Shown piece after piece: positions 19,154-49,626 of a stretch of DNA of 64,000 bases. How positions within the stretch are numbered: position 1 is the first letter of the stretch; each line of letters opens with the position of its first letter. Made by a program: the position numbers and the translations under genes. The stretch is from Scheffersomyces stipitis CBS 6054 (lineage: Eukaryota > Ascomycota > Pichiomycetes > Serinales > Debaryomycetaceae). A model generated the notes under the pieces. That model worked only from the letters and a program-made list of their open reading frames with translations. It made no database searches and had not been told where the DNA came from. The DNA lies in assembly GCF_000209165.1 (NCBI RefSeq), contig NC_009048.1:868001-932000 (forward strand), given 5' to 3'.

Positions 19154-20992
19154 ATGGACGTGGTGAAAAGAACAACCTACCACGGTCTTGACTGTTTGGC
19201 CGATGCCAACACGCCTGAATATGCAATGCTCCACAAAGAGCTGTCCATGAAGATTGCCTGGGCAAGCCAGGCCAAGTACGGAAAGTATACTGTGTATTTT
19301 GGGGTGGTGATAATATTTGTTGCTTTGCTAAAGCATTTGTGGTACCGATTCAGAGACACAAGATACAAGAAAAACCAGTCTTCCAGATTTATAGTGCCAT
19401 TTATTGACGTTTTTGTAGCGTACTCGCGATTTTTGGGGTATAAACAGGTTCCCGAACGGTTGAGTTACTTTACTTCATTGCCGCATTCTATGGGATCTGC
19501 CATCTTTATGTTTGTTTCGTCGCTCTACTTGTTGTGCTACTGTTTGGTTCCTCACTTCTGGTATAGGCCCTGTTTGGGCTTTGGCTCGCCACCTTTGGGT
19601 GTGAGAGCTGGCATCATGGCCACAGCCTTGACTCCATTCGTGTACGTGTTGGCTGGTAAGGCTAATATGATCACCTTTCTTACTGGGATCAGCTACGAAA
19701 AGTTGAACCAACACCATCAGTATGTTGGATTGGCCGCTTTTGTACTTTCGATAATTCACACTGTTCCTTTCATCTACATGAATGTAAGAGAAGGCGGAAC
19801 TAGCAGAATCCGCGAGCAGTTCCAGACCTTCTCCTACTACAGTGGAATTCCACCTTTGATCTTGTTGGGGTTTTTGTGTATTTGTTCAAAAGCTTGGTTC
19901 AGAAAAGTTTGCTACGAAGGGTTCCTTCATCTTCACTGGGTCGCCGGTATTGGCTACTTTGGAACGCTTATCTGGCATATCGACAAAACATTGAACTGTG
20001 ATGACTACATGTGGGGTGCATTAGCATTCTGGGCTTCTCAAATACTCTACAGAATTCTAGTTAAAACTTGTTTCAAGCCAAATTCATTGTTTTTGAGACC
20101 TAGAGTTGCTAAGTTACAGAAGTTGTGTGATGGCGCTTACGAGGTTACTGTAGCCAACACTAAGGGTTACGAATGGGGCCCTGGACAACACTGTTTCTTG
20201 AGATTCACTGGTGCGAGATTTATGGATAATCATCCATTTTCTATTTCTTCCATGATCGACGAAGATTCAAAGGAAATGAAGTTCCTTATCATTCCAAAGA
20301 AGGGTTTGACCAAGGTGATTTACGACCAGTTGGACGATAACATAGCTAGTGAAAGGAAGGTGTTCCTTGACGGTCCATATGGTGGAACTCCAAGAGATTC
20401 AACTGCATTTGAGAGGGCAATTTTAATCAGCACTGGAAGTGGTGTCACCGCTACTTTACCATTCTTGTTGCACTTGTCCCAGGAAATCAAGAAAGCCAAG
20501 GAATCAGGTACCAGGATTGTCACAAAGCATATTAACTTCATCTGGGTCATCAGACACCAGGACAACATCAGTTGGATACGTGACGAGTTACTCAAATGCA
20601 AAGATATTGCTGGTGACTACATCTCCATTGATATCTACGTTAGCCAAAAAGATGAAGTCGAACTCAAAGAATACAGTGACTCGAAACTGTCTGAAGAGCC
20701 TCTCAAATTGTCGAATGAAGCAGACCTCGAAAACAACATCGAAGTCAACAATTCGGTGGACTCATTTGAGCAGTTCAATTTTCACTACCACAAACCTGCT
20801 ATTTCCAGAGTTATCCATAGTTTAGCTAACACACTCGACAGAAGGAATTTGATTGTGTCATCAGGAAGCGAATCCATGAAGTCTTCAGTCAGCTCTACCG
20901 TTTCCAACATGCAATCTTTAGTATTCAACAACGATGTGAACCAATCTTGTATTGAGGAAATCTACTTGCATACCGAGTCCTTCGGCTGGTAA
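19154..20992 (+). CDS. Ferric-reductase-family flavocytochrome (FRE/Frp-like), first copy
   Basis: Predicted 612-residue membrane oxidoreductase of the family that moves electrons from NADPH through FAD and two haems across a membrane to Fe(III) or Cu(II). It has a short N-terminus with no obvious cleaved signal and about six to seven membrane helices. The four haem ligands sit at the canonical spacing: His188/His202 (within QHHQYVGLAAFVLSIIHT) and His261/His275 (LHLHWVAGIGYFGTLIWH). FAD-binding HPFSISS, the FLDGPYGG loop and the NADPH-binding STGSGVTATLPFLLHL follow, then an acidic/Ser-rich insert and a C-terminal FGW. Similar Candida Frp1/Frp2 proteins take part in haem uptake, so haem rather than free iron is possible. 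A GATA iron motif lies upstream. Confidence 0.8.
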   Translation: MDVVKRTTYHGLDCLADANTPEYAMLHKELSMKIAWASQAKYGKYTVYFGVVIIFVALLKHLWYRFRDTRYKKNQSSRFIVPFIDVFVAYSRFLGYKQVPERLSYFTSLPHSMGSAIFMFVSSLYLLCYCLVPHFWYRPCLGFGSPPLGVRAGIMATALTPFVYVLAGKANMITFLTGISYEKLNQHHQYVGLAAFVLSIIHTVPFIYMNVREGGTSRIREQFQTFSYYSGIPPLILLGFLCICSKAWFRKVCYEGFLHLHWVAGIGYFGTLIWHIDKTLNCDDYMWGALAFWASQILYRILVKTCFKPNSLFLRPRVAKLQKLCDGAYEVTVANTKGYEWGPGQHCFLRFTGARFMDNHPFSISSMIDEDSKEMKFLIIPKKGLTKVIYDQLDDNIASERKVFLDGPYGGTPRDSTAFERAILISTGSGVTATLPFLLHLSQEIKKAKESGTRIVTKHINFIWVIRHQDNISWIRDELLKCKDIAGDYISIDIYVSQKDEVELKEYSDSKLSEEPLKLSNEADLENNIEVNNSVDSFEQFNFHYHKPAISRVIHSLANTLDRRNLIVSSGSESMKSSVSSTVSNMQSLVFNNDVNQSCIEEIYLHTESFGW

Positions 20993-31363: not shown

Positions 31364-32569
31364 ATGTCCTCCACTTTAGCTGCTGAAGTTTACGACAAGT
31401 TCGAAAATGAATTCGTTGATTGTCAATCTCCAACTGAACCCAAGGCCTTGACTGATGAATCATTAGTCCCTGTCCTGAAGGGTGAGTTTGATAAAAAATT
31501 CAACGAAATCGACGAAAGGTTCAATGAGGTAAACAAAAACCTTACGAACTTAATTAACAAGCTTAATCTCGGAGAAGTTCCAAACAAGGAACCAAAGGGT
31601 AAGGAAAAGGCTGATGCTACAAATGCTGGTAATGGATCAGAGTCCCAATCAGATTCGGAGTCATCGCTGGATTCTGACGAAGACCTGCTGGAAAATATTA
31701 ACACTCCTATATCCGAGACCCTTGAAAGAGGTAAGGGATATAGTACTTCGAATTCTAAAGAAGAAATTAGAAGGTCGGTATGGAGACTAATTGATAAATA
31801 TGAAGACCAACTTCAAAAGTTGCCAGAATTGGATACAAGCCCTGAGACTATAGCCAAGTATAAGACCACACTCAAACGCGTCTACACTCGGATTCCGCCA
31901 TTAAAGGAGATCGTATTGAATGACTTTAACCTCAAATCAACCTCAAAAGATACGGTTTTTCTTGACGGTCATAGTACAGCCAATAAGGTATACTTCTATA
32001 AATTAGTGGCCGAAAATATAGCAAGTATCCTAAGCGAAAACACAGCAACAGCTTTTGAAAACGAAGCTGGAAATGTTACATTGAAGAAAATCATCGGATA
32101 CATCGAAACTCACGATGGTAATGATTGTTCAGCACAGATCATTGAATATATCAAGAAGTTTAAAAAGATCGAAAGACTCACCAATACTTCAGATATTGAG
32201 AATCATCTTGTACGTATAACTTCCGTTACCGATCGTCAGATTACCCAGTTCTTAAAAACATTAAACTCCCGCGATGCTATTGCCTACTTCATATATGTCA
32301 ACAACAGTAACGAATCAAATGTCAAAGCTTTAGGTAGACAACTAAATGAACAATACCAAGCTTTTAAAAATGATTCATCAAAGGTTGCAGCTCCACTCAG
32401 ACATACATTTCTTAAAATGAGATCCGATTCAAATTTTATTGATATGCCTCTGAATTCGTCGGATAAACAACTTCAAAATAAGAAAAGTCATACACATGGA
32501 TACAAAAAGAACCAAAATTACACTGAATCACAAAAGAACAGTGGAAATAAGAACTTCGCCAACAATTAA
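31364..32569 (+). CDS. Retrotransposon Gag
   Basis: 401-residue capsid-type protein starting at the first ATG after the primer site. It is Lys/Glu/Ser-rich with an acidic Ser tract (about residues 90-110), a helical central capsid region and a basic, Asn/Lys-rich C-terminus (HGYKKNQNYTESQKN). There is no CCHC zinc knuckle, as in Ty1 and Tca2 Gag. It ends at TAA (32567-32569), after which the same frame stays open into pol. Three CTG codons in the acidic tract make a Ser-rich run if decoded as Ser. Confidence 0.88.
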   Translation: MSSTLAAEVYDKFENEFVDCQSPTEPKALTDESLVPVLKGEFDKKFNEIDERFNEVNKNLTNLINKLNLGEVPNKEPKGKEKADATNAGNGSESQSDSESSLDSDEDLLENINTPISETLERGKGYSTSNSKEEIRRSVWRLIDKYEDQLQKLPELDTSPETIAKYKTTLKRVYTRIPPLKEIVLNDFNLKSTSKDTVFLDGHSTANKVYFYKLVAENIASILSENTATAFENEAGNVTLKKIIGYIETHDGNDCSAQIIEYIKKFKKIERLTNTSDIENHLVRITSVTDRQITQFLKTLNSRDAIAYFIYVNNSNESNVKALGRQLNEQYQAFKNDSSKVAAPLRHTFLKMRSDSNFIDMPLNSSDKQLQNKKSHTHGYKKNQNYTESQKNSGNKNFANN

Positions 32570-32614
32570 TGGTTTGGTGGTCACCCAAATCGTCAAATCT
32601 TTTACTTAGGTGAC
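32567..32614 (+). promoter_or_regulatory. Gag-pol stop codon with candidate readthrough pseudoknot
   Basis: TAA at 32567-32569 is the only stop between gag and pol in their shared frame. Downstream, TTTGG (32573-32577) can pair with CCAAA (32585-32589). The enclosed loop GTCAC (32580-32584) can pair with GTGAC (32610-32614), giving an H-type pseudoknot: two 5-bp stems, a 2-nt first loop and a 20-nt last loop. An alternative hairpin uses GTCACC/GGTGAC. Stop-codon suppression aided by RNA structure is the known strategy of Tca2 and of some retroviruses. Here the fold is predicted by eye only. Confidence 0.5.
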
Positions 32615-35600
32615 GAACCACTGCTGTCAAATGTACTATTTCTATACGATTCAGGTTGTTCAAGAACGTGTGTTAATTCCACAAAATTATTGCATGATAT
32701 AACCTATGAGCCTAAAGGCCAAGGTACATCATTTCGTGTTGCTGACGGAAGAACCGTACGAGCTATTGCAAAAGGTACGCTTGACATACATCTAGACCCA
32801 AAGGTATCTATCTCCAACGTTATGGTCGTCCCTGAAATCTCTTGTAATCTCATATCAGTTGGCCAACTACTTGAACAAGGATGGACAACCGTGCTCACAG
32901 ACGACGGAGCCTATATTGCCAATAGTGAACACATGCTCAAAGTTGCTAATAGAAAGAATAATCTTTTCATTTCTAAACTTTCTGCCAAAAATAATATCGA
33001 ATCACTTCATTTTTTTGAAGAGGAATATTCCACAATACATAATATTCCTGCTGAAGTTGCCGAACTACACGGCCCCCAAGACTGGTTTTATCACCATCTA
33101 CAATGCAGTCATATGGCAATTTCAAATTTACAATCCCTTGCAAAAATGGGATTTATTAAGGTAGTTGATACGGAAGAGAGTATCCGTAGGGTGAAAGAAT
33201 GTCGCCTATGTCACGCCGTGAACATTAGACAAGCATCACATAACCACACCACCCAAAGACCTGCCACACGTCGGTTAGAAAGAGTTAGTAGTGACACGAT
33301 GGGACCCTTCCTCATCGGCCACAAAAAATACTTTATCACTACACTCATTGATCATTTCTCCCGATTTACCGAACTTATCTTTACATCTCATAAGCAAGTC
33401 ATGGATGATGTTCTCCTTCTCTTGCACATATGGAACAATAGATTTCCAGAAAGGATAGCGCATTTTAGAGCAGACAATGCCAAAGAACTACCTGACACCG
33501 AACTGCTTGCCAAACTTGGCATAAAACGAGATAAGATTGCTAGCTACTCTCCGGAATTGAATGGACTTGCTGAATCCCACAACCGTACGATCTTGCGAAA
33601 TATATACAAGATTATCCTTCAATTTCCGAATTACACAGACAAGGTTCTTTGTCTTTTTGACCACATCATTGAATATGTGCTGTACATTAAGAACCATACG
33701 CCCAACAAGGCTCTCAAAGGTAGGACTCCTTATGAAGTCTTTAATAAGCTCGATGCATACAGACCGACATATATTCAATTTGGCTTGGACGTGTCAGTTA
33801 AAGCATCTTCGCCAGAGGAATTTAAAAAATTGCATATTCCTCTACCCAATGCACCAGCTAATCCAAATAATAAGCAATACCCGATGACATTCTTTGGTAC
33901 TTTTATTGGTTTCTGCGAAGACAACTACACATATAAAATCCTCGTCAGTACGAAAAACTTCCCAGTTATTCAGACAGTAAATGTCAAGTTCATGAGTTCC
34001 ATGGCACATATTAACTCATACTTCAAATCGCTTGATTTCTCTCAAATTCAGGAGGCGAACGAAGTTAAAGCGACCTTGAATGCCCAAGTCGCTGCTGCTC
34101 AATTTAAACTTAATCAAGAAGCCCATGACTATGATACTTTTGAATCCGTTCGACAGGAAAATGTACCTTCCACATCAGCGGGCATCCACGAAAAATCAGC
34201 CGTGATGACCCGTGGTATTTCAGAAGCAAGGAGGGATCCGTCGCCCACGGATAATTGTTCAACTGATCCTCAACCCTCTTTCCTGATCTTAGCCAAGAAA
34301 CATCCCGAAGTGTACACGAACGTTACTAACAAATTTCCTTGGATGACAAATCCTGAACATCCAAAACCTATTACTACTACAGATAAGACTCATAGAGAGA
34401 GCACGAGCACTGCAATTAATTCGTCCACATTAGTGGGGGGGACAAACGTACGAATACCTACCCCAGTCAATAAACAGGTAGCTCCTGTATCCGGAGAGGA
34501 TATCCAGAGAGATACTCCACTGGGCTATAAATCCGACTCAGGCATAACTTCTACTCAAAGAGAGCAGAAGGCTGATGAAACCAAATATGAACTCATTAAT
34601 GAAGATGCACCCGTTGCAACATTAAAAGAATCTCAAAATCCTGCCTCAAAGCAAATTATTGTTAAAGATCATAACAATAAAAGCGATAATGCAAATGATA
34701 AGCACATCCCAGCTGCAATTGAAATTACCGAACTCAATTCAGATACGAAATCGTCTAAAGACACTGGTAACGTCAAGACGAAACATGGCATTGTTCAACC
34801 GATTGACAATCAAGGGGAGAGCACAACTATCAAGAATGAGCCAGAGATGATTCAAGCACCTTCAAACAGAGACGTCCGAGCTTTGAAACGTCAAAGAATG
34901 CAAGAGGGACTCACACCAGAACCATCAGTTAAATTAAAGCGGTCACCCAATTTTACTCCGGAAAGTAAGACACTTAAAACAAGGACAAAGACGCATCCGG
35001 GCCAAAAGAGCAGCGTCTATTCTGTATCAGCTAAAACTAAAACTGATACAGAAGGGGGCGACAATAAAAGACAGAGGAAAACATCACCAGACTTCCTGAG
35101 TATAAGCACAATCAACCTTATGGCCAGTTTGATTGAGTCTAGATCAACTGACGTATGTACAAATATCGAAGGTGCACATTGCTTATTCTCATTGATCGAT
35201 CAAATTGAAGAAGACTCGGATGATTTACCAATCAATGTTATAAATGCTGTTATCGAAAACATTGATTACAACGATAAAAATTGGATAGAATCCATGGATC
35301 GTGAAATAGACAAATTCATTAAATTGAACGTTTTTGAAGTCGTTGATATTCCGAAAGGCAGGAAAGCCATATCCACCAGATGGGTACATACATCTAAGGA
35401 TGGAGGAATAAAAGGCGTTAAATACAAAAGCAGATGTGTCGTTAGAGGTTTTCTACAACAACCCGGCCGGGATTTCGATCCATCAAAAATATCATCCCCC
35501 GTTGTAGACCTATTGACCATCAGATTACTAGTTTCTATTGCCACCACTAACAATTATATTATCCACCAGCTCGATATTGAATCTGCGTATCTAAACGCGC

Positions 35601-36874
35601 CATTATCGAACAATGAGCCAATCTACATCCGTCCACCGAAAGGATACGAATTGCCAAAGAATAAATGCTGGTTGGTTAAAAAGGCAATATATGGTATGCG
35701 ACAAAGTGGGTACGAATGGTACCACACATTACTCAAGGTTATTCAAAACTTCGGTTTTGAGGAATCATCATTCGCTTCAGGATTGTTCCACAAAAAGAAC
35801 AAAGGTGACATAATCATCATTGCTGTTTATGTTGATGACTTATTCATGGTGTCATCAAGCGAAAGGATGCTTAAAGAATTCAAACGAGACCTACAAAAGC
35901 ATTTCGACATGAAGTACCTTGAAGAAATCAAGGAATACCTTGGGGTAAAATTTCATAAGACCGAGAACGGTTACATTATGTCCCAGACAGAATACTTACA
36001 AAATATTGTAAAGCAATTCAAACTTGAAGAATCATATGGAAAGTATATTCCAATGATCAAAGACAAGTCGAAGTACAATAATGCATCCACCACTGTTAAA
36101 GATCACTTTATCGAGGACAATCCGATAAACAACCAAACATTATTGGATGCAAAGGGTAAAGAGCTATATCAAAAGGGAGTAGGATTATTGCTTTGGGCAA
36201 ATCGAAATACTCGTCCTGATATATCTTTTGCTGCCAATCAGTTGGGTAGCAAAGGTGCCAACCCAAATATAAATGATTTTCAGAAATTATTATACTGCAT
36301 TCGTTACCTCAAGCTGAACATAGATTATGAATTAAAATATGAGAGCAACCAATCATCAAACAAGAAATTAGATTTTAACATAGTTGCTTACACAGATGCT
36401 TCCTTCGCTCCAGAGAAGGATAGAAGATCAATTACTGGAAATGCCATTTATCTCAACGGACATTTGGTTAGCTGGACCACTAAACGTCAACATAACATTA
36501 CTACAAGTTCTGCTAGTTGCGAATTGGTCGCTTTAAAGCTGACTGCAGAGACGTCGATCCGTATAAAGAACATCTTAAGAGAACTTGGATTCATAGTGTC
36601 AAGCGTACAAATCTATGAAGATAATCAAGCTGTAATCGCCAATTGCAAAAACGAAAATATCTCCCATAGTAGGAGAATGGTGGACATCGATATCAAATTG
36701 TTGAGACAATTGATTAAGGATAAAGAAATCCTACTTGACTATGTCAAGACATCAGTAAACACGGCTGACATGTTTACTAAAGCGCTATCTAGAGCGCAAT
36801 TTATTACTCTTAGGGATCATCTAGTTTCCAATGTCAGAAACGCTTCTACATTTGATTCACGTACAAAGCGTTAA
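32570..36874 (+). CDS. Retrotransposon Pol (protease-integrase-RT-RNase H), made by readthrough
   Basis: 1434 open codons follow the gag stop in the same frame, with no internal stop. Order of domains: aspartic protease with DSG (Asp codon at 32648-32650); integrase with an HHCC finger (about 33080-33215) and a D,D,E core (SSDTMGPF; RADNAKEL; ELNGLAES); an integrase tail rich in Pro/Lys/Thr (about 34100-35100); reverse transcriptase (RWVHTSKD, HQLDIESAYLNA, YVDD at 35828-35839). RNase H follows (YTDASFA, CELVALK, YEDNQAV). Integrase before RT defines the Ty1/copia (Pseudoviridae) class. There is no good ATG near the start, consistent with expression only as a Gag-Pol fusion. It ends seven bases before the 3' LTR, overlapping the polypurine tract. 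Confidence 0.9.
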   Translation, partial: WFGGHPNRQIFYLGDEPLLSNVLFLYDSGCSRTCVNSTKLLHDITYEPKGQGTSFRVADGRTVRAIAKGTLDIHLDPKVSISNVMVVPEISCNLISVGQLLEQGWTTVLTDDGAYIANSEHMLKVANRKNNLFISKLSAKNNIESLHFFEEEYSTIHNIPAEVAELHGPQDWFYHHLQCSHMAISNLQSLAKMGFIKVVDTEESIRRVKECRLCHAVNIRQASHNHTTQRPATRRLERVSSDTMGPFLIGHKKYFITTLIDHFSRFTELIFTSHKQVMDDVLLLLHIWNNRFPERIAHFRADNAKELPDTELLAKLGIKRDKIASYSPELNGLAESHNRTILRNIYKIILQFPNYTDKVLCLFDHIIEYVLYIKNHTPNKALKGRTPYEVFNKLDAYRPTYIQFGLDVSVKASSPEEFKKLHIPLPNAPANPNNKQYPMTFFGTFIGFCEDNYTYKILVSTKNFPVIQTVNVKFMSSMAHINSYFKSLDFSQIQEANEVKATLNAQVAAAQFKLNQEAHDYDTFESVRQENVPSTSAGIHEKSAVMTRGISEARRDPSPTDNCSTDPQPSFLILAKKHPEVYTNVTNKFPWMTNPEHPKPITTTDKTHRESTSTAINSSTLVGGTNVRIPTPVNKQVAPVSGEDIQRDTPLGYKSDSGITSTQREQKADETKYELINEDAPVATLKESQNPASKQIIVKDHNNKSDNANDKHIPAAIEITELNSDTKSSKDTGNVKTKHGIVQPIDNQGESTTIKNEPEMIQAPSNRDVRALKRQRMQEGLTPEPSVKLKRSPNFTPESKTLKTRTKTHPGQKSSVYSVSAKTKTDTEGGDNKRQRKTSPDFLSISTINLMASLIESRSTDVCTNIEGAHCLFSLIDQIEEDSDDLPINVINAVIENIDYNDKNWIESMDREIDKFIKLNVFEVVDIPKGRKAISTRWVHTSKDGGIKGVKYKSRCVVRGFLQQPGRDFDPSKISSPVVDLLTIRLLVSIATTNNYIIHQLDIESAYLNAPLSNNEPIYIRPPKGYELPKNKCWLVKKAIYGMRQSGYEWYHTLLKVIQNFGFEESSFASGLFHKKNKGDIIIIAVYVDDLFMVSSSERMLKEFKRDLQKHFDMKYLEEIKEYLGVKFHKTENGYIMSQTEYLQNIVKQFKLEESYGKYIPMIKDKSKYNNASTTVKDHFIEDNPINNQTLLDAKGKELYQKGVGLLLWANRNTRPDISFAANQLGSKGANPNINDFQKLLYCIRYLKLNIDYELKYESNQSSNKKLDFNIVAYTDASFAPEKDRRSITGNAIYLNGHLVSWTTKRQHNITTSSASCELVALKLTAETSIRIKNILRELGFIVSSVQIYEDNQAVIANCKNENISHSRRMVDIDIKLLRQLIKDKEILLDYVKTSVNTADMFTKALSRAQFITLRDHLVSNVRNASTFDSRTKR

Positions 36875-36880
36875 GGGGAG
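36873..36880 (+). other. Polypurine tract
   Basis: AAGGGGAG lies immediately upstream of the 3' LTR and overlaps the pol stop codon. It is the expected plus-strand primer of the retroelement. Confidence 0.8.
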
Positions 36881-37165
36881 TGATGGAAAATAAGATACAG
36901 GATCTCTAATAATGGTTTCCGAGGTGACCAACCTCGGATTGGATCCGATAAATATCCGAAACAGAAATTCTACATTTCTTTTGTTGAATAACGCAACAAA
37001 CTACAGAGATGAGATGAGGATGAAGAATATATAAAGCCCAGAGGATTCCCTCTAGTTTAAACAGATTTTAAATAGTTCTTCAGTGATTAATATAACTCCA
37101 TATCCATTAATCCATTTCTAAGTCCAAAAGGAAAACCGGCCTACCCATATACAGGTTTCCCGTCA
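36881..37165 (+). repeat. 3' LTR (285 bp)
   Basis: Same length and, on reading, the same sequence as the 5' LTR. It ends CCCGTCA. Its own TATA box points towards the sugar-transporter gene 420 bp further on. Confidence 0.93.
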
Positions 37166-37584: not shown

Positions 37585-39219
37585 ATGTCCAGTGTTGAAA
37601 AAAGTGCTGAAACTGCTTCCTATACGTCGCAGGTCAGCGCAAGCGGCTCTGCAAAGACCAACAGCTACCTTGGCCTCAGAGGCCACAAACTTAATTTTGC
37701 TGTCTCTTGTTTTGCTGGTGTTGGTTTCTTACTTTTCGGTTACGATCAAGGTGTCATGGGTTCATTGTTGACCTTGCCATCCTTCGAAAACACTTTCCCG
37801 GCCATGAAGGCTAGCAACAACGCTACCTTACAAGGCGCCGTTATTGCACTTTATGAAATCGGTTGTATGTCTTCTTCTTTAGCAACCATTTACCTTGGTG
37901 ACAGATTGGGTAGATTGAAGATCATGTTTATTGGCTGTGTAATTGTCTGTATTGGTGCTGCTTTGCAAGCTTCTGCTTTCACTATTGCTCACTTGACTGT
38001 TGCTAGAATTATCACTGGTTTAGGTACAGGTTTCATCACTTCTACTGTTCCAGTTTACCAATCGGAGTGCTCTCCAGCCAAGAAAAGAGGACAGTTGATC
38101 ATGATGGAAGGTTCTCTTATCGCCCTTGGCATTGCCATCTCATACTGGATTGACTTTGGATTTTACTTTTTGAGAAACGATGGTTTGCACTCCTCGGCTT
38201 CTTGGAGAGCACCTATCGCGCTTCAATGTGTCTTCGCTGTCTTGTTGATTTCCACAGTCTTCTTCTTCCCAGAATCTCCAAGATGGTTGCTCAACAAAGG
38301 TAGGACCGAAGAAGCTAGAGAAGTTTTTTCTGCTCTTTACGACTTGCCAGCCGACTCTGAAAAGATTTCTATTCAAATTGAAGAAATTCAAGCTGCTATA
38401 GATTTAGAAAGACAAGCCGGAGAAGGTTTCGTACTTAAGGAATTGTTCACTCAGGGCCCAGCCAGAAACTTGCAGCGTGTGGCCTTGTCATGTTGGTCTC
38501 AAATAATGCAACAAATCACTGGTATTAACATTATTACGTACTATGCTGGTACTATTTTTGAATCATACATTGGTATGAGTCCATTTATGTCAAGAATCTT
38601 GGCTGCCTTGAACGGTACTGAATATTTCCTTGTCTCTCTTATTGCTTTCTACACCGTCGAAAGATTAGGTAGAAGATTCCTTTTGTTCTGGGGTGCCATC
38701 GCCATGGCTCTTGTCATGGCTGGTTTAACTGTTACCGTTAAACTTGCCGGTGAAGGCAACACCCATGCTGGTGTCGGTGCTGCTGTTCTTTTGTTTGCAT
38801 TCAACTCATTCTTCGGCGTCTCCTGGTTAGGTGGATCCTGGTTGTTACCACCTGAATTGTTGTCTTTGAAATTGAGAGCTCCTGGTGCTGCTTTGTCGAC
38901 CGCTTCTAACTGGGCTTTTAACTTCATGGTTGTCATGATCACTCCTGTCGGTTTCCAAAGTATTGGTTCCTACACCTACCTTATCTTTGCTGCCATCAAT
39001 TTGTTGATGGCTCCGGTCATCTACTTCTTGTATCCCGAAACCAAGGGTAGATCGTTGGAAGAAATGGATATCATTTTCAACCAATGTCCTGTTTGGGAGC
39101 CATGGAAGGTTGTCCAAATTGCCAGAGACCTCCCTATTATGCACTCAGAAGTTCTTGACCACGAAAAGGATGTCATTATTGAAAAATCTAGAATAGAGCA
39201 TGTCGAAAACATCAGCTAA
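37585..39219 (+). CDS. HXT2: Hexose transporter, S. stipitis HXT2.x-type MFS carrier
   Basis: Predicted 544-residue, 12-helix sugar porter: FLLFGYDQGVMGSLLTLPSF (TM1), DRLGRLK, VYQSECSPAKKRGQ, PESPRWLL, QQITGINIITYYAGT, ERLGRRF, YPETKGRSLEEMD. The N-terminus MSSVEKSAETASYTSQVS and the TM1 wording are, as I recall, those of the S. stipitis HXT2.x group (HXT2.1-2.6), of which HXT2.4 is closest in my memory. Which member it is cannot be settled by eye. The role is glucose/fructose, perhaps xylose, uptake at the plasma membrane; substrate is inferred. Codon use is strongly biased, as for a highly expressed gene. Confidence 0.85.
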   Translation: MSSVEKSAETASYTSQVSASGSAKTNSYLGLRGHKLNFAVSCFAGVGFLLFGYDQGVMGSLLTLPSFENTFPAMKASNNATLQGAVIALYEIGCMSSSLATIYLGDRLGRLKIMFIGCVIVCIGAALQASAFTIAHLTVARIITGLGTGFITSTVPVYQSECSPAKKRGQLIMMEGSLIALGIAISYWIDFGFYFLRNDGLHSSASWRAPIALQCVFAVLLISTVFFFPESPRWLLNKGRTEEAREVFSALYDLPADSEKISIQIEEIQAAIDLERQAGEGFVLKELFTQGPARNLQRVALSCWSQIMQQITGINIITYYAGTIFESYIGMSPFMSRILAALNGTEYFLVSLIAFYTVERLGRRFLLFWGAIAMALVMAGLTVTVKLAGEGNTHAGVGAAVLLFAFNSFFGVSWLGGSWLLPPELLSLKLRAPGAALSTASNWAFNFMVVMITPVGFQSIGSYTYLIFAAINLLMAPVIYFLYPETKGRSLEEMDIIFNQCPVWEPWKVVQIARDLPIMHSEVLDHEKDVIIEKSRIEHVENIS

Positions 39220-40006: not shown

Positions 40007-40660
40007 ATGAAGGGTTTACGTATATTCGTAGCTGGAACTGATACCGATGTGGGCAAGACCTTCGTGTCGTCGATATTGGCCAAACGATGGGGTTGCAATT
40101 ACTGGAAACCGATCCAAACTGGCTTGGAGTCGGAGGAAGGTGACCTTATGACCGTGAAACGGTTGACCAAGCTCAAAAGCGACCACTTCGCCTCACCACT
40201 GGTCCTGCTAAGAAAGCCATTATCTCCCTGGGTAGCGGCAATGCATGAAAATAAGGAAATTAGGGTGTCGGATTTCACAATTCCTAAGCGGTTCCAACAG
40301 AGTGAACGATGCTTGTTAGTAGAAGGAGCTGGGGGGTTGTATGTGCCGATCAACCGTAATGAGATAATGACCGATCTCATTACTCAATTGAACTGCAAGA
40401 CTCTTTTGGTATGTAGGAGTGAGCTAGGAACCATAAACCATACCTTGCTCAGTATCGAACACTTGAGAGCGCGGGGCATAGAAATTATGGCCCTAATCAT
40501 GAATGGCATTCCCAATGACGACAACGCCAAAGCCATCCATACTCTCAGTGGTGGAGTCCCCATCCTCTGTCAGATTCCACCTTCGACAAGCATCGATGAT
40601 TTGACTCTGTTAGTTCCCGATTTAGAATCGTTAGTGGGCGCAAATAGCCAATCTCCATAG
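40007..40660 (+). CDS. BIO4: Dethiobiotin synthetase (Bio4/BioD)
   Basis: Predicted 217-residue enzyme that closes the ureido ring of dethiobiotin from 7,8-diaminopelargonate, CO2 and ATP, the penultimate step of biotin synthesis. The frame extends to a TTG at 39992, but the first ATG is at 40007. P-loop AGTDTDVGKTFVSS (about residues 8-21), the KPIQTG substrate motif, the VEGAGGLYVPINRN motif (Mg/ATP site) and the nucleotide-selecting LIMNGIP are all present. The length fits the family (about 220-240). The enzyme is probably cytosolic. It is convergent with the superoxide dismutase gene (281 bp apart). No other biotin gene lies in the window. Confidence 0.9.
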   Translation: MKGLRIFVAGTDTDVGKTFVSSILAKRWGCNYWKPIQTGLESEEGDLMTVKRLTKLKSDHFASPLVLLRKPLSPWVAAMHENKEIRVSDFTIPKRFQQSERCLLVEGAGGLYVPINRNEIMTDLITQLNCKTLLVCRSELGTINHTLLSIEHLRARGIEIMALIMNGIPNDDNAKAIHTLSGGVPILCQIPPSTSIDDLTLLVPDLESLVGANSQSP

Positions 40661-42417: not shown

Positions 42418-44367
42418 TTAATCAAATGATTCGTCGTAAAAGTAAATATTAGGGCAATCCTTTGTCCATTTATGTTTCTGACATTCCAACTTAGCTGTAT
42501 AATTGAAAGAATGAGGTCCACAAGCAGCCACAGCCAAAGACTTGTAGAAATTTTCTTCTGGATACTTAAGACTATTGACGTGGTACTCAATAATCTGAGG
42601 GATGTTGGGACGAGTGTTATAGAAAACCTGACAGTTATTAGAGAAAACGGAGCTGGAACTTGAAGTTGCTGCCGTCAGCTTTGATTCCTTAACTATTGTT
42701 ACCTTCTCTGAACTCTTTTCCTTTGAGGTAACCTCTTCCTCAACTATTTGTGGCTCTTCAATAACTTCTTCAATAACTGTTGGTCCACTTACCTCCTGGG
42801 TTATGTAGATATCCAACATTAGCTTTCCACTATTAACATAAGGCATTAACATTTTCAATTGTGCGCTGTACCAATCAATATTCTTGAATTTCTTGATGGA
42901 CCAAGTCACACGAACGGTAGGGTTCAGCGGACGGTATAGGTAGTCTCTTTCAATCTCTCTACTTTCGATATTTTTTAGAAGGTCAAGACACACGGGGAAA
43001 ACGAACGAAGCTCCTGAGCCAGCAGCCATGAATACAATAGAGTCAAAAGTAATGAGAGGGTGAAACCTACCACCATAAGGTCCATAGAATGAAGCTTTGA
43101 GTTTCACTATTTCAGGGTTGTCCAGTTCAGTACTTGCGGTGTCTTCAACTATGGAAGAATTTTGCAGTGTCTCTTCTGTTGAATTGTTTGATTGGATAGA
43201 GGATGCTTCGCTGGCCGTATCTGCCTCCAATTGTTCTTCTTGTAGCTTTTTGACCTTTTTCATAAGCTTCTTAGTAAAGCCATTCTTAACTCTGATAATT
43301 AGCTGTATTTTTCCAGTCTCTGACAAACTAGCTATTGTGAATGGGTGTTGTTGGAATCTGCTAACTTTTCCGACTGTTAATAGGACATGTTGGCCAGCCT
43401 TCCAAGATCCGTACTTAGGAACAAATTGGTTGTACCAAACGTCGGCATTCTGACTGGATAGCTTGACTGGAATAGTGACACGGAGAGTTTTTTCGTCAAG
43501 AATTTCAAACTCTGACATACCTTTGGTTGGAGATTTAACTTTGTGAATAATACTAATAATTCTTCCGATAACCTTATCCAACACGAGTAAATGAACAGCA
43601 AGTATGACCATAGCCTTGGAACCTCCATTATGGAAGAAGGCAAGAAGCAACATTATAAATGAGAAAATACGATGCTGTACCATGAAGAAATCAAAGGCAT
43701 ATCTTCGGATGATCTTAATGTTGGCAAATGTCAACAAAAACAAACTACCATAGGACATAAACCCAAAGATCTGAGGAGGTATTTGCAACATAACAATGAA
43801 ATTCAGATCCAACCAATACTTGATGGTCATGATCATATGGACAGTAATCATAGTAAACAAAAGTCTTGCGAACCAAAAGTGCAAAAACACCAATCTTTCA
43901 GGTTTCAAGCCAGTGATAGAAGCAACAAGATCGTTTTTGGTAACCAAAAGATATATTATAGGAAGATTTCCCAAAGCGACCTTCCCAATTCTCTTGCCTA
44001 TGACGTACATTCTGGGTAAGTAGTCGATATCGATAGTATCGATATAGCAGAATCTGACGTTGACTATAATGAACATTAAAAACAAGAGTAAGACTGAAGG
44101 TTGATAATGGTAAGTCCAGCCAAAGAAGGGGATATCGAGCTTGAAGCAATGATTCAAAGAATCCCACATGTTGAAGAAGATGAATACAGGCTTGTATTTC
44201 ATAAACTTGACATCTCTCTTGCTTCTTAAAAATCTGGGAATCCAGTAGAATACAATTCCATGGAAGATAAAGACAAGGATGCAAAAGAGATAATTCAACC
44301 ACTGGTACCTAGTGCCTCTCTCCTTCTCAACAAAGAACTGTTGGTCAAAGGGAATTGACGAAGTCAT
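42418..44367 (-). CDS. Ferric-reductase-like flavocytochrome (Frp-like), second copy
   Basis: Predicted 649-residue membrane flavocytochrome. The frame reaches a TTG upstream; the first ATG is at 44365-44367. No cleaved signal is seen. Four haem-ligand His residues have the canonical 13-residue spacing: His163/His177 and His232/His246. FAD-site HPFTIAS, GPYGGRF and NADPH-site AAGSGASFVFPV follow, with two acidic, Ser-rich inserts. The C-terminus CGPHSFNYTAKLEC...YFYDESFD is typical of the family. It is divergent from a triple-CFEM gene with 1.8 kb between them. In Candida, Frp1/Frp2 ferric-reductase-like proteins are known to work with CFEM haemophores in haem uptake, so a haem-acquisition role is more likely than general iron reduction. 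This is an inference from context. Confidence 0.78.
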   Translation of the reverse strand: MTSSIPFDQQFFVEKERGTRYQWLNYLFCILVFIFHGIVFYWIPRFLRSKRDVKFMKYKPVFIFFNMWDSLNHCFKLDIPFFGWTYHYQPSVLLLFLMFIIVNVRFCYIDTIDIDYLPRMYVIGKRIGKVALGNLPIIYLLVTKNDLVASITGLKPERLVFLHFWFARLLFTMITVHMIMTIKYWLDLNFIVMLQIPPQIFGFMSYGSLFLLTFANIKIIRRYAFDFFMVQHRIFSFIMLLLAFFHNGGSKAMVILAVHLLVLDKVIGRIISIIHKVKSPTKGMSEFEILDEKTLRVTIPVKLSSQNADVWYNQFVPKYGSWKAGQHVLLTVGKVSRFQQHPFTIASLSETGKIQLIIRVKNGFTKKLMKKVKKLQEEQLEADTASEASSIQSNNSTEETLQNSSIVEDTASTELDNPEIVKLKASFYGPYGGRFHPLITFDSIVFMAAGSGASFVFPVCLDLLKNIESREIERDYLYRPLNPTVRVTWSIKKFKNIDWYSAQLKMLMPYVNSGKLMLDIYITQEVSGPTVIEEVIEEPQIVEEEVTSKEKSSEKVTIVKESKLTAATSSSSSVFSNNCQVFYNTRPNIPQIIEYHVNSLKYPEENFYKSLAVAACGPHSFNYTAKLECQKHKWTKDCPNIYFYDESFD

Positions 44368-46164
44368 AGAAAATGTCAATGAAAACTACTCTATTAAATC
44401 TACCACATTTACATCTACCTACTACACCCATGGGATGGAACCAGCCTTGCTAATAAACCATTTTGCACAAATAGGATCTACCAATCCAATGAGAAATTTT
44501 CAAATCCGCCGAGAAAAAATAGGAATGGCAACCATTGGTTGAAATCAGGTCCAATTCTTGATTTATAGTGAATGGCTATGCTGACTGCAGAAATAAAATC
44601 AACTGGGACAGTTCACCTTGGCAGAAATGTATACAAAAAATGATGACATCCAGACTGGAGTGAGACTAAATGAGCATCACAGCAGCATTCCCAGGACCAG
44701 AAACACCGCTCGAAATAAGACCAGATCTAAAGAACCATTCGATCCGTACGACATTCGCCATTTTTATCATGTCGGCAATTCAAGCCATTTTCTAAAATCA
44801 ATACCCCACTTGAACTAATGACTAGTCTAGAATGCTGGATTCCACTTGCGTCGAATAATAAAACTGGAGAGTCCCCATTAGGTTCTGGATGCAGATTTGC
44901 TCCCGATTTACGCAGCCAAATTCCTATTTACACTAGGCTCCAAATGAGCCGCAGAGGGAGAGATCAGAGCATCGATTCGTATACCTTGCAGCAAGAAAGT
45001 TCCAAACAGGTGGTTTAATGCCTCGTTTGAAATTTTTAAATTACATAATGTCGTGGAGAAATGGCTTTGAAGTTTTAATATTGTTCTTGTCGCTTAGGAG
45101 CCGCCATCTTATCTGATCAATCTACTGGCAACCTCCGAAAAGCGGAAATGAAAAGGCTTGGCACTGCTAAAAAATATTCGAGTGCAAAAAAATTGCACCA
45201 AGACTTCTATGAAAGATGAAAATACAACGTTTCTGCCCCTTAGGCTCGTTTGTACTTGGGCGACTGGAGAGCTGGTTTTAATTCCTTATAGCGTGGAATT
45301 TCATGTATTCAGTGATGCTACCCGATGTACGACACCTCCCAATACTCGAGACTTAGTTGACCGACTCCAAGATTTGCAGATCGCCAATAGTTAGCAAAAC
45401 GCTCTTGGATCGCATTCTCTGCGATTTCTCTTGGTTGCGCAGCTCGTTTCCAGTTGAACATCACCAGTTAGGAAACAACCCCTCCGTATGAAAAAGTGTA
45501 GCTACGTTCGCTATTCACCACTCCCAGTAGCCTCTCCGGCAAACCGATATGTCCGCTGCAGCCAGAGAGCCATTGTCTGGTCTGTAAATTGGAAGATGCA
45601 AAAATTAAAGTTGTAGATGCTGCAGCAGTCTTGGCTTTATCAGTCTTATACACCCAATCCGATATGTCCGTTCAAAAATAAAACCTAAACAGCGACACGA
45701 TCTCCACCTACGCTGCTCAAGTAGGCCAACTCGTATCCATATTTACCACCAGCACTTCCACTTTTGCAACCGAACTAATGCGATATTTTTTACATGCTTT
45801 CATGTAATGCACAACAACACGGCGGCATTTGTGTCCTTCTAGGACGAATTGATTGCCTTTTTAAATGAAGATGCCTGTTTTCAATAGGCTGCTTTGGACA
45901 TTGGCACATGTTGCCTAACAATAATGTCGCTGGCGACAAATTTGGGTCAGATCCATATTTAGTTTCGTGGGAGCTTGCTTTGCACCCAACGGTGATTGGA
46001 CTATTTCGAAGCGAACTTCGGAAATATATCAGTACCTGCTTGCAGCTAACGATACTGTTCTTGATCTTGATCTTGATATATATATGTGTAGGTGCGGTTG
46101 CATTTGTCAATTCGTAAAGTATAGTTCGACATAGCAAAGTAAGTGAAAAACAAGTTCTCTCGTT
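44368..46164. promoter_or_regulatory. Shared 1.8-kb divergent regulatory region (reductase / CFEM gene)
   Basis: No gene I can support; frames at 44618-44818, 44818-45018, 45158-45394 and 45908-46117 have no recognisable domains. Near its centre lies a perfect GATA-type iron motif at 45109-45117. Its length is unusual for a divergent yeast promoter and fits a pair of regulated genes. Confidence 0.5.
45109..45117 (-). promoter_or_regulatory. GATA-type iron-regulator motif (ATCAGATAA on the minus strand)
   Basis: The plus strand reads TTATCTGAT, the exact complement of ATCAGATAA. This matches the ATCWGATAA consensus of fungal iron repressors (Urbs1/Sre/Fep1 class). It lies 742 bp upstream of the reductase start and about 1050 bp upstream of the CFEM gene. 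Confidence 0.5.
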
Positions 46165-49100
46165 ATGAAGTCCTCAATAGTTTTGCTTGCAGGTGTTGCA
46201 GCCACCTTAGCAGCCGACATTACTGAAGCCCCAACCACCAGTACTGATAACCCATACACACAATACCCAAGTGTTCCTAAGACTGCATCCATCAATGGTT
46301 TTGCTGACAGAATCTATGATGATCTTCCAGCTTGTGCACAACCATGTATGTTCCAAAACACTGGTATCACCCCATGTCCATACTGGGACACTGGTTGTCT
46401 CTGTGTCATGCCTCAATTTAGTGGACTTATTGGACAGTGTATTGCCGATGCTTGTCGTGGTGAAGAGGTTCTGGTTGCTACAAGTTTGGCAATTTCTATC
46501 TGTTCTAGTGCCGGTGTATGGGAACCATACTGGATGATTCCAGCTTCTGTTTCTCAAGCTCTTGCTTCTGCTGCCGCAGAAGTTGCTACTGCCAGTGCTA
46601 CTCCTACTGACGATGCTAGTCCGACCGAAGAATCTTCCACTGTTGAAGAAACCTCTACTGCTGATGAAACATCATCCACTGAAGAAACTGAAGAGACATC
46701 CACTGAAGAAACATCTACTGATGAAGAAACATCTTCAACTGAAGAAACTACTGACGTTACTGAGACCTCTTCCGTTGAGGAAACACCTGAATCTACCACA
46801 CCAACTGTCACCGATGCTCCAACTGGATCTAGTAGCACTCCTGCTGCCCCCATCAGAACTGCTTCTATCAATGGATTTGCTGACCCAATCTACGATAAAC
46901 TTCCAGCTTGTGCCCAGCCATGTGTGTTCCAAGACACTGGTATCACTCCTTGTCCATACTGGGATGCTGGATGTCTATGCGTAATGCCTCAATTTGGCAG
47001 TCTTATTGGTGAATGTATTGCAGAAGCTTGTTGTGGTGAAGACGTTGCCTTTGCAACGAGCTTGGCTGTGTCCGTCTGTTCCAGCGCTGGTGTTAAATCC
47101 GAACCATACTGGAGAGTTGCTTCGTCTGTTTCTGATGAATTGGCTGCTGCCGCTACTGCTGAGTGTAGCGCCACTAGTTCTGCAGAAGAAACATCCTCCA
47201 CTGAAGAAACATCCTCAGTTGAAGAAACATCGTCTGCTGAAGAAACCTCATCTGCTGAAGAAACCTCTTCTGCTGATGAAACCTCTTCTGCTGATGAAAC
47301 CTCTTCTGCTGCTGAAACTTCTGCTGACGAAACATCTTCTGCTGCTGAAACTTCTGCTGACGAAACATCTTCTGCTGCAGAAACTTCTGCTGACGAAACT
47401 TCTTCTGCTGACGAAACTTCTTCTGCTGACGAAACTTCTTCTGCTGACGAAACTTCTTCTGAGGCTGAAACTTCTTCTGAGGCTGAAACTTCTGCTGAAG
47501 AAACTTCTGCTGACGAAACTTCTTCTGCTGAAGAAACTTCTTCTGCTGACGAAACACCTGAATCTACCACTCCTACTATTACCGATGCTCCTACCTCTTC
47601 TACTGATAACCCATACACGCAATATCCAAGTGTCGCTAAGACTGCATCCATCAATGGTTTTGCTGACAAAATCTATGATGATCTTCCACCTTGCGCTCAA
47701 CCATGTATGTTCCAAAACACTGGTATCACCCCATGTCCATACTGGGACACTGGTTGTCTCTGTGTCATGCCTCAATTTGGTGGACTCATTGGTGACTGTA
47801 TCGCCGATGCTTGTCGTGGTGAAGAGGTTCTGGTTGCTACAAGTTTGGCAATTTCTATCTGTTCTAGTGCCGGTGTATGGGAACCATACTGGATGATTCC
47901 AGCTTCTGTTTCCGAAGCTCTTGCTTCTGCTGCTGCAGATGTCGCTACTGCTAGTGCTACTCCAACTGACGATGCAAGCTCGGCTGAAGAATCATCTGGT
48001 GCTGAACAAACCTCTTCTGCCGATGAAACTTCGTCTGCTGCTGAAACTTCTGCTGAAGAAACTTCTTCTGCTGACGAAACTTCTTCTGCTGATGAAACTT
48101 CTGCTGAAGAAACCTCTTCTGCTGATGAATCCTCTTCTGCTGTTGAAACTTCTGCTGACGAAACATCTTCTGCTGCTGAAACATCTTCTGCTGCTGAAAC
48201 ATCTTCTGCTGCTGAAACATCTTCTGCCGATGAAACTTCTGCCGATGAATCTTCGGTTGAATCTGCCACTTCCGTCCCATTGAGTTCTGTTTCATCTAGC
48301 TCTGACGATGAAGATACCACCAGTGCTCCAGTTTCCTCTACCACACCAGAATCTTCCTACTCCTGGACTCACACTGAAACTACGACCTTCACTTTCCAAG
48401 TCACTGCTATTGCAGACGAACCAGAAACTTACTCTGCTTATGTCGATGCCAACAATGACTCGTTAACTTTGAACGAAAATAATGGTCCATTCTTTGAATT
48501 GAGACTTCCAGAAGGTTACCTTTACATAAACGGTTTGTTCGTGGATGCTCAAGACGAAACAGGTTTAACAGTTGGTACCTCCCCAGTCGGTGGATGGGAA
48601 TTCTTCGGTGATCCATTGTTGGAATTCGAAGGCAACCACAACTTCTTCATTTGTACAGATCAGGAAGTTCCAATCCAAGTTCAATCGATTGCGCCAGACT
48701 GTCTTCCTGGTGTTTTGCTTCTTACCACGGATGGAGAAAGTGCCACTTCCACCGCATCCAACGGTGAATCCTCTCAAACCGGTAATGGAGAAGGCGCTTC
48801 CACCACTGATACTGCTGGCGAAGGAGAACACTCTGACTCTACTGGATCTGTTCCTTCTGGTACCATCACCACCGTCATCACCTCTGAAGAAGTTGTTACT
48901 GTTACAAAGTGTCCCGCCACTGTGACTAACTGTCCTGCTGAATCCAAGGCTACTGTTACTATCTCTCACACTATCACCACCACGTACTGTCCAGAAGAGA
49001 CTATCTCTTCTAAGCCAACTGGTGCTGCTACTAAGGTTATCACATCTACTGATGTCTACACTGTGACCCAATGCCCAGTTACTGTCACCAACTGTCCAGC

Positions 49101-49626
49101 TGAGTCTGTATTGACCGTCACCATTCCTCGTACCGTCACTAGCTATGCTGCATCTCATGAAAAGCCTGGTGCTCCAGTGACTCACGTTTCTCTTATAACA
49201 AAGACCGTCGCTTCCGCTGGAAAGACATCTACAATAATTGTTTCCCATACAATTGTCAGCACTCCAATTGAAACTGTAGCTGCAAAAACTACACAAGTTG
49301 CTGGAGCTGACGTTCCTCATGCAATCGAGAACACTCCGGTTCAAACAGTAGTTGCTGGAACTCCTGGTGCCGACGTTCCCCATGCTGTTGACAACACTCC
49401 AGCTCAAGCCGTGGTTGCTGGAACTCCTGGCGCTGACCAAGCTGTCGACAACACTCCAGTCCAAACCGTAGCTGCTGCAACTCAAGTTGCCAGCATCTCA
49501 GGTCCTGGAGCTTCGGTTGAAAGTGTTTCTGCTTCAATTGAACAGGCCAACGAAGGTGCACTCGCCAAGGTCCCAACCACCTTGTTCGGAGGTTTGGTTG
49601 CGATTGCCGCTGGCTTAATGTTCTAA
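46165..49626 (+). CDS. Triple-CFEM, Ser/Thr/Glu-repeat GPI-type surface protein (Csa1/Rbt5-like)
   Basis: Predicted 1153-residue secreted, wall-anchored protein. It has a signal peptide (MKSSIVLLAGVAATLAA) and three CFEM modules from first to last Cys at residues 57-113, 249-305 and 510-566, each with the C..C..C..C.C..C..C..C pattern. Each has an Asp just before the GCLC pair (WDTGC, WDAGC, WDTGC), at the position of the haem-ligating Asp of Candida Csa2. Long acidic Ser/Glu/Thr repeat stalks follow modules 2 and 3. A non-repetitive globular part (about 730-850) follows, then two CPxTVTNCPAES repeats and VVAGTPGAD repeats. A hydrophobic C-terminus (LFGGLVAIAAGLMF) fits GPI anchoring. Haem binding at the surface is the likely role. 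Module 2 has a ninth Cys. Confidence 0.88.
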   Translation: MKSSIVLLAGVAATLAADITEAPTTSTDNPYTQYPSVPKTASINGFADRIYDDLPACAQPCMFQNTGITPCPYWDTGCLCVMPQFSGLIGQCIADACRGEEVLVATSLAISICSSAGVWEPYWMIPASVSQALASAAAEVATASATPTDDASPTEESSTVEETSTADETSSTEETEETSTEETSTDEETSSTEETTDVTETSSVEETPESTTPTVTDAPTGSSSTPAAPIRTASINGFADPIYDKLPACAQPCVFQDTGITPCPYWDAGCLCVMPQFGSLIGECIAEACCGEDVAFATSLAVSVCSSAGVKSEPYWRVASSVSDELAAAATAECSATSSAEETSSTEETSSVEETSSAEETSSAEETSSADETSSADETSSAAETSADETSSAAETSADETSSAAETSADETSSADETSSADETSSADETSSEAETSSEAETSAEETSADETSSAEETSSADETPESTTPTITDAPTSSTDNPYTQYPSVAKTASINGFADKIYDDLPPCAQPCMFQNTGITPCPYWDTGCLCVMPQFGGLIGDCIADACRGEEVLVATSLAISICSSAGVWEPYWMIPASVSEALASAAADVATASATPTDDASSAEESSGAEQTSSADETSSAAETSAEETSSADETSSADETSAEETSSADESSSAVETSADETSSAAETSSAAETSSAAETSSADETSADESSVESATSVPLSSVSSSSDDEDTTSAPVSSTTPESSYSWTHTETTTFTFQVTAIADEPETYSAYVDANNDSLTLNENNGPFFELRLPEGYLYINGLFVDAQDETGLTVGTSPVGGWEFFGDPLLEFEGNHNFFICTDQEVPIQVQSIAPDCLPGVLLLTTDGESATSTASNGESSQTGNGEGASTTDTAGEGEHSDSTGSVPSGTITTVITSEEVVTVTKCPATVTNCPAESKATVTISHTITTTYCPEETISSKPTGAATKVITSTDVYTVTQCPVTVTNCPAESVLTVTIPRTVTSYAASHEKPGAPVTHVSLITKTVASAGKTSTIIVSHTIVSTPIETVAAKTTQVAGADVPHAIENTPVQTVVAGTPGADVPHAVDNTPAQAVVAGTPGADQAVDNTPVQTVAAATQVASISGPGASVESVSASIEQANEGALAKVPTTLFGGLVAIAAGLMF
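47170..47560 (+). repeat. Coding tandem repeats (SSA-E/D-ET units), first block
   Basis: Tandem 15-18-nt units such as GAAACTTCTTCTGCTGAC, coding Ser/Ala/Glu/Asp/Thr, occupy the stalk after the second CFEM module. Several consecutive 18-nt units are identical, so copy number is likely to vary. A similar block follows the third module (about 47980-48250). Confidence 0.8.
47980..48250 (+). repeat. Coding tandem repeats (SSA-E/D-ET units), second block
   Basis: Same unit type as the block at 47170-47560, after the third CFEM module. The two blocks flank a near-duplicate CFEM module and could promote unequal recombination. Confidence 0.75.

What the first reader, a model, noticed from the sequence alone, without database searches (positions are those of the whole stretch)
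42418..49626. Divergent haem/iron module: Frp-like flavocytochrome facing a triple-CFEM surface protein
The sequence shows a ferric-reductase-like gene with all four haem-ligand His and intact FAD/NADPH sites, head-to-head with a GPI-type protein carrying three CFEM modules. Each module has the haem-ligand Asp position. Established knowledge: Candida CFEM proteins (Rbt5/Pga7/Csa2) relay haem, and ferric-reductase-like Frp1/Frp2 act as partners in haem uptake. Pairing in one locus suggests a co-regulated haem-acquisition unit in a yeast studied mainly for xylose use.
Basis: partly seen in the sequence, partly recalled or inferred. Interest (0 to 1): 0.75.

Follow-up and report, generated by a model that had tools for sequence, protein, structure and literature searches.

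The report
Yeast haem-uptake gene pair FRP2–CSA1
A wood-sugar yeast carries, back to back, a membrane electron-transfer gene and a haem-binding cell-wall gene that match a haem-scavenging pair already described in Candida; new here are a rare DNA switch word shared by its haem genes and a hint that the Candida version of the membrane protein has lost its electron-input site.

Summary
Two head-to-head ORFs, 42418-44367(-), 649 aa, and 46165-49626(+), 1153 aa, lie in Scheffersomyces stipitis, and the haem-uptake reading holds. The reductase falls in the Frp2 clade (100/100), apart from this genome's Frp1 (contig C4) and its eight other Ferric_reduct proteins. The partner is a Csa1-type protein with three CFEM modules, each with its Asp. 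Head-to-head FRP2-CSA1 is published for Candida-clade yeasts (PMC9635878), and so is hemin and haemoglobin use by S. stipitis (PMC7175094). The core is a new member of a known kind.

Two results go further. (1) The shared promoter holds two perfect Hap1-consensus sites, CGGACATATCGG. CGGACATATCSS occurs seven times in the genome; six lie upstream of FRP2/CSA1, FRP1/PGA7, a CSA2-like gene or haem oxygenase. (2) The window's Frp2 keeps its FAD/NADPH motifs. Of 19 Candida/Lodderomyces-type Frp2 hits, 17 lost the first Gly of the NADPH loop, 17 the HPFT Thr, and none has CGP; 16 of 16 Frp2 representatives keep four haem-ligand His. Candida Frp2 may have lost NADPH-driven reduction while this one kept it.

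The parts
42418..44367 (-). FRP2: flavocytochrome b without extracellular N-terminal domain, 649 aa; His 163/177/232/246, HPFT 341, GPYG 429, GSG 450, CGP 616
46165..49626 (+). CSA1-type cell-wall protein, 1153 aa, three CFEM modules in Ser/Thr-rich linkers
46273..46584 (+). CFEM module 1 (approximate limits), Asp75, 8 Cys
46852..47163 (+). CFEM module 2 (approximate limits), Asp267, 9 Cys
47629..47943 (+). CFEM module 3 (approximate limits), Asp528, 8 Cys; 264 of 276 bases identical to module 1
44368..46164 (.). shared promoter region, 1797 bp
45544..45555 (-). perfect Hap1-consensus site CGGACATATCGG
45659..45670 (-). perfect Hap1-consensus site CGGACATATCGG
48352..48735 (+). C-terminal domain of the CSA1-type protein (residues 730-857), also found in five other ORFs of this genome
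40942..41568 (-). Fe/Mn superoxide dismutase gene downstream of FRP2 on the same strand; same order as in a joined Spathaspora gene model (neighbour, not part of the mechanism)

Best explanation
The locus is the S. stipitis FRP2-CSA1 pair of the CFEM/Frp haem-uptake system. Csa1, anchored in the cell wall, binds ferric haem through the Asp of each CFEM module. Haem passes along the CFEM relay to the plasma membrane. There Frp2, a flavocytochrome b without the extracellular substrate domain of Fre reductases, takes electrons from NADPH through FAD and two b haems to release haem from the CFEM site, and/or carries haem inward. Both genes are driven from one promoter by a Hap1-type haem-responsive regulator. 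Shown here: anatomy, orthology, head-to-head arrangement, intact cofactor motifs, shared promoter sites. Inferred from Candida work: haem binding, relay, reduction or carriage, and regulation.
For: Frp2 clade at 100/100; eight own non-FRP proteins outside the 87-row FRP group, 95. CFEM modules align to the solved haemophore Csa2 and to a protein named CSA1 of C. albicans, 72% over 97% of the query part. FRP1 on C4 likewise faces CFEM genes. Two perfect Hap1-consensus sites in the promoter, 0.017 expected at the genome rate; six of seven genome sites of CGGACATATCSS lie upstream of haem-uptake or haem-oxygenase genes. Published: Frp1/Frp2 act in haem uptake and the pair is syntenic (PMC9635878); Hap1 controls FRP2 and CSA1 in C. 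albicans (PMC9491583); S. stipitis uses hemin and haemoglobin (PMC7175094).
Against: No expression or phenotype data for this locus. C. albicans csa1 deletion showed no phenotype, and frp2 matters mainly at alkaline pH (PMC9635878). WGATAR sites are not enriched in the promoter (3 against 5.3). The seventh CGGACATATCSS site is not near a haem-uptake gene. Whether S. stipitis has a Hap1 (Zcf20) orthologue was not searched, and direct Hap1 binding is unproven even in C. albicans.
Confidence: 0.8

Rival explanations
1. Frp2 works only as a haem carrier or receptor; NADPH-driven reduction is dispensable and the intact motifs of the S. stipitis protein are an ancestral leftover.
For: Candida/Lodderomyces-type Frp2 lost NADPH/FAD motif residues (17 of 19 the loop Gly, 17 of 19 the HPFT Thr, 19 of 19 the CGP proline), yet C. 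albicans Frp2 acts in haem and haem-analogue uptake, and Frp1/2 take up analogues that are little or not redox-active (PMC9635878).
Against: The motifs are intact in S. stipitis and S. xylosifermentans Frp2, which suggests selection to keep them there; the Candida Frp2 NADPH domain is still well conserved between C. tropicalis and the presumed C. albicans protein (62.9%, as in Frp1 62.5%).
Confidence: 0.3
2. Csa1 is mainly a structural or adhesive wall protein and its pairing with Frp2 has little to do with haem in this yeast.
For: No csa1 phenotype in C. albicans (PMC9635878); long Ser/Thr-rich linkers (46-52% S+T in three stretches); a C-terminal domain shared with five other ORFs that look like wall proteins.
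Against: All three modules keep the Asp and the eight Cys; modules 1 and 3 are 264 of 276 bases identical, as after recent duplication or conversion; Hap1-type sites in the promoter.
Confidence: 0.2
3. The 649-aa protein is a plain Fre-type ferric reductase for iron chelates and the CFEM neighbour is a coincidence.
For: Same three Pfam domains as Fre proteins; database copies are named ferric reductase.
Against: 19-24% identity to the eight other Ferric_reduct proteins of this genome against 44-60% to the seven Frp2 orthologues compared; tree; no N-terminal extracellular domain; conserved head-to-head order.
Confidence: 0.04

Closest known systems
C. albicans FRP2-CSA1 pair (orf19.7112 and orf19.7114)
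   Same: Same clade of reductase, CFEM partner 72% identical over the part searched, head-to-head order (PMC9635878), perfect Hap1-consensus site in the promoter (PMC9491583)
   Different: Three CFEM modules here against four in the listed C. albicans CSA1; FAD/NADPH motifs intact here, eroded in the presumed C. albicans Frp2, P0018; a C-terminal domain here that none of the 19 CSA1-type hits shows
FRP1-PGA7-RBT5 locus (in this genome C4:36131-40963)
   Same: Frp gene head-to-head with CFEM genes; Hap1-type site in the promoter
   Different: Frp1 clade; CFEM genes with one module each; C4 Frp1 is 43.5% identical to the window protein
Fre ferric reductases and NADPH oxidases (NOX2, NOX5)
   Same: Flavocytochrome b core with four His, FAD and NADPH domains; best PDB fold matches NOX2 and NOX5
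   Different: No extracellular substrate domain as in Fre proteins; separate group in the tree
Csa2 (PDB 4y7s)
   Same: CFEM fold by sequence, E 3.4e-47, haem-ligand Asp aligned
   Different: One module, against three modules in a 1153-aa wall-type protein

Membership tests
Frp (Frp1/Frp2) haem-uptake proteins | Groups with Frp proteins, apart from Fre homologues | tested here: met
   Frp2 clade 100/100; FRP group of 87 rows apart from eight own other proteins, 95
Frp (Frp1/Frp2) haem-uptake proteins | Lacks the extracellular N-terminal substrate domain | tested here: met
   First predicted helix at residues 7-49, no domain before it
Frp (Frp1/Frp2) haem-uptake proteins | Head-to-head with a CFEM gene (common, not universal) | tested here: met
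Frp (Frp1/Frp2) haem-uptake proteins | Needed for haem uptake | not testable with these tools
   needs deletion strains
Fre-type ferric reductase | Has the N-terminal CFEM-like substrate domain and groups with Fre proteins | tested here: not met
CFEM haemophore (Csa1/Rbt5/Csa2 type) | CFEM modules with eight Cys and the haem-ligand Asp | tested here: met
   Three modules; Cys 8, 9 and 8; Asp 75, 267, 528
CFEM haemophore (Csa1/Rbt5/Csa2 type) | Secreted and GPI-anchored or cell-wall bound | tested here: inconclusive
   Signal and tail judged by eye in the sequence; no predictor run
CFEM haemophore (Csa1/Rbt5/Csa2 type) | Binds ferric haem and passes it on | not testable with these tools
   needs purified protein
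Hap1 haem regulon | Hap1-consensus sites in the promoter | tested here: met
   Two perfect sites, 0.017 expected
Hap1 haem regulon | Induced by hemin in a Hap1-dependent way | not testable with these tools
   needs expression data in S. stipitis

The most novel reading that the evidence does not exclude
Frp2 has split into two functional states: an NADPH-competent form kept in Scheffersomyces (this window) and a Candida/Lodderomyces form that keeps the transmembrane haem ligands but has lost NADPH input, so that Frp2-dependent haem entry there runs without NADPH-driven reduction by Frp2. The S. stipitis pair would then be the natural comparison for deciding whether Frp proteins reduce haem, carry it, or both.
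Probability: 0.35. Interest if true: 0.7.

Novelty: new member of a known kind. Interest (0 to 1): 0.42.

Why it matters
It shows both FRP-CFEM pairs, a CSA2-like gene and haem oxygenase under what looks like one rare promoter word in a yeast studied mainly for xylose use, so the system can be taken apart outside Candida. The contrast between intact and eroded NADPH motifs within one orthologous group makes an open question raised in PMC9635878, whether Frp proteins act as haem reductases or as haem receptors, directly testable.

Tried and rejected
Plain Fre identity and chance neighbourhood: tested and rejected. Promoter words: WGATAR is not enriched (3 against 5.3); CCAAT (10 against 3.9) and GCCAAG (3 against 0.6) are above mononucleotide shuffles, but such short words are weak evidence and I do not lean on them. 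Hap1-type sites with up to one mismatch are at chance level in the window (15 found, 12.3 expected); only the perfect sites and the 12-letter word carry weight. Structure of the C-terminal CSA1 domain from one sequence failed (mean pLDDT 32). A protein search with that domain scored none of 413 candidates, but only proteins of similar total length can be candidates. The 595-aa database model of FRP2 (P0004) lacks two in-frame stretches of 84 and 78 bp with GT...AG ends and no CTAAC, CTGAC or CTAAT word; I keep the 649-aa reading. NADPH-loop Gly: a first count on representatives gave 0 of 10 Candida-type Frp2 with Gly; the 80% clustering had dropped rows, and the full set of 19 has two that keep it (P0024, P0079), so the figure used is 17 of 19 lost. 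Faster divergence of the Frp2 NADPH domain was looked for and is not consistent: same as Frp1 in the tropicalis/albicans-type pair, faster in the jiufengensis/pseudojiufengensis pair.
Full report
What is there. The window is C8:868001-932000 of a 15.44 Mb genome in eight contigs. A 595-aa database model of the reductase, on a contig of the same length as C8, is named Scheffersomyces stipitis (P0004). Read with CTG=Ser, the two genes lie at 42418-44367 (minus, 649 aa) and 46165-49626 (plus, 1153 aa), head-to-head over 1797 bp. The first is a flavocytochrome b with four His at 163, 177, 232 and 246, HPFT at 341, GPYG at 429, GSG at 450 and CGP at 616. AlphaFold2 on 48 aligned sequences gives mean pLDDT 86.2 and pTM 0.84, with the first helix at residues 7-49 and no domain before it; the best PDB fold matches are NOX2 and NOX5. 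The second has three CFEM modules with Asp at 75, 267 and 528. Modules 1 and 3 match in 264 of 276 bases, module 2 matches them in 201 and 199, so 1 and 3 were recently duplicated or homogenised.

Which family. The genome has ten Ferric_reduct places: this gene, a paralogue at C4:39122-40963, and eight others. The window protein is 19-24% identical to the eight, 43.5% to the C4 paralogue and 44-60% to seven Frp2 orthologues. The protein search found 159 relatives, of which 120 are listed. A quick tree used 86 representatives of these (clustered at 80% identity; two alternative gene models and pieces under 500 aa left out), a trimmed P0007 and the eight own proteins: the 87 FRP rows stand apart from the eight, support 95. 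That tree warns of long branches among the eight, so their own order is not used. A careful tree of 51 FRP rows puts the window protein in a 16-row clade at 100/100, sister to S. xylosifermentans at 99/98. The clade holds P0018 (592 aa), which I take for C. albicans Frp2. The C4 paralogue groups with P0087 (554 aa), which I take for C. albicans Frp1, at 96/94. These two names are inferred from length (+1776 and +1662 in the GFP constructs of PMC9635878) and from 36.0% mutual identity against 36% in the paper; P0077, named FRP1 of C. metapsilosis, falls with P0087. Plain identity alone would not decide (44.7% to P0018, 42.0% to P0087); the trees do.

Partner and neighbours. A search with residues 20-145 returned 19 proteins, one named CSA1 [Candida albicans] at 72% over 97% of that part. 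The 19 carry one to six WDxGCxC motifs (some are partial records), so three is within the range. On C4 the FRP1 gene faces two CFEM genes, 36131-37156 and 37615-38286, both minus, the order known as RBT5-PGA7-FRP1. A superoxide dismutase gene follows FRP2 on the same strand, and a Spathaspora sp. JA1 gene model joins the two in that order (P0007). P0007 and the CFEM protein P0124 have the same longest-contig length (197783), as do P0025 and P0129 (99745), which suggests linkage there too.

What is in print. [quoted passage not shown] FRP1-PGA7 and FRP2-CSA1 are head-to-head with synteny conserved in 75% and 70% of the genomes; csa1 has no detected phenotype; reductase and receptor roles are both proposed. 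I could not see whether S. stipitis was among its genomes. PMC7175094 (one passage): S. stipitis uses hemin and haemoglobin. PMC9491583 (passages): Hap1-dependent expression of RBT5, PGA7, CSA1, FRP1, FRP2 and HMX1, a perfect CGGNNNTANCGG site at FRP2/CSA1, direct binding not shown. PMC3228736 (passages): HIS4-RBT5-PGA7-FRP1 order in Candida species. The pairing itself is therefore known.

Promoter word. The only two perfect CGGNNNTANCGG sites of the 64 kb window lie in this promoter, at 45544 and 45659, both reading CGGACATATCGG. The genome has 147 perfect sites, so 0.017 are expected in 1797 bp and the Poisson chance of two or more is 1.4e-4. The 12-letter word occurs three times in the genome, and CGGACATATCSS seven times: two here; C4:38693 in the FRP1/PGA7 promoter; C1:663115 and 663210 upstream of a CSA2-like CFEM ORF starting at 663675; C1:602440, 229 bp upstream of the one haem oxygenase gene found; and C3:979330, about 2 kb upstream of an ORF that looks by eye like a P450. 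The word was taken from the window, so the two window sites are given; of the other five, four lie upstream of haem genes, against about 0.001 expected in 2836 bp of such promoter. I had scanned these promoters with a looser pattern before fixing the word, so that figure is a guide only. A related word, CGGANATATCGC, has six sites: the three CGGACATATCGC sites above, a second one in the FRP1/PGA7 promoter, and two elsewhere, C7:993470 and C8:713801, the latter inside a long ORF. No paper on this in S. stipitis turned up in the searches.

NADPH and FAD motifs. Among the 120 listed hits, 19 are Candida/Lodderomyces-type Frp2 (ten placed by tree, nine by best BLAST match), four are Spathaspora/C. 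subhashii-type, three are Scheffersomyces Frp2 (one of them the alternative model of the window gene), and 94 are others. The Thr of HPFT is kept in 2 of 19, 4 of 4, 3 of 3 and 94 of 94. The first Gly of the NADPH loop is kept in 2 of 19, 4 of 4, 3 of 3 and 92 of 94 (one Ser; one fragment where the loop was not found). The Pro of CGP is kept in 0 of 19, in none of the three Spathaspora-type rows that have the site, in all Scheffersomyces rows, and in 82 of 94. The script misread P0005 by catching an earlier CG; its motif is CGP. The Pro alone is not diagnostic: Frp1 rows P0033 and P0087 have CGS. The four His are kept in 16 of 16 Frp2 representatives and in 71 of 71 others; in the full set one Candida-type row, P0024, did not fit my simple His pattern and was not resolved. 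Against a dead domain: the Frp2 NADPH region between C. tropicalis and P0018 is as conserved (62.9%) as in Frp1 (62.5%), so it keeps some role. That these motifs bind FAD and NADPH is recalled; GPYG and the Gly loop align with NOX5. The searches listed no paper on this; in PMC9635878 NADPH occurs once, in the reference list.

How it most likely works. Csa1 takes up ferric haem in the wall, Frp2 at the membrane reduces and/or carries it inward, and a Hap1-type factor raises both genes. Anatomy, orthology and promoter sites are shown here; each biochemical step is inferred from Candida. The open point is whether reduction is needed, and the contrast between this Frp2 and the Candida ones is the handle on it.

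Verdict. The added value is the promoter word and the motif contrast.

Noticed in passing
48352-48735 (+): The C-terminal domain of the CSA1-type protein recurs in five other ORFs of this genome (C1:2556105, C2:2203404, C1:19359, C7:14380, C3:102694), some with two copies; no Pfam match, and none of the 19 CSA1-type hits has it.
   Followed up: partly
42418-44367 (-): The database model of this gene (P0004, 595 aa) lacks two in-frame stretches of 84 and 78 bp that look like wrongly called introns.
   Followed up: partly
19154-20992 (+): A second Ferric_reduct / FAD_binding_8 / NAD_binding_6 protein in the same window, 612 aa, on a long branch outside the FRP group.
   Followed up: partly
31364-36874 (+): Two ORFs (401 and 1350 aa) that look by eye like the gag and pol genes of a copia-type retroelement; not searched.
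   Followed up: no
40007-40660 (+): A 217-aa AAA_26 protein that looks like a dethiobiotin synthetase, next to the superoxide dismutase gene.
   Followed up: no
L036:1501-1512 (C3:979330): The one CGGACATATCSS site not upstream of a haem-uptake or haem-oxygenase gene; it lies about 2 kb upstream of an ORF that looks like a P450, itself a haem enzyme.
   Followed up: partly
1290-2513 (+) and 5248-6285 (+): Two ORFs that look by eye like diverged copies of one gene, with one gene between them; not searched.
   Followed up: no
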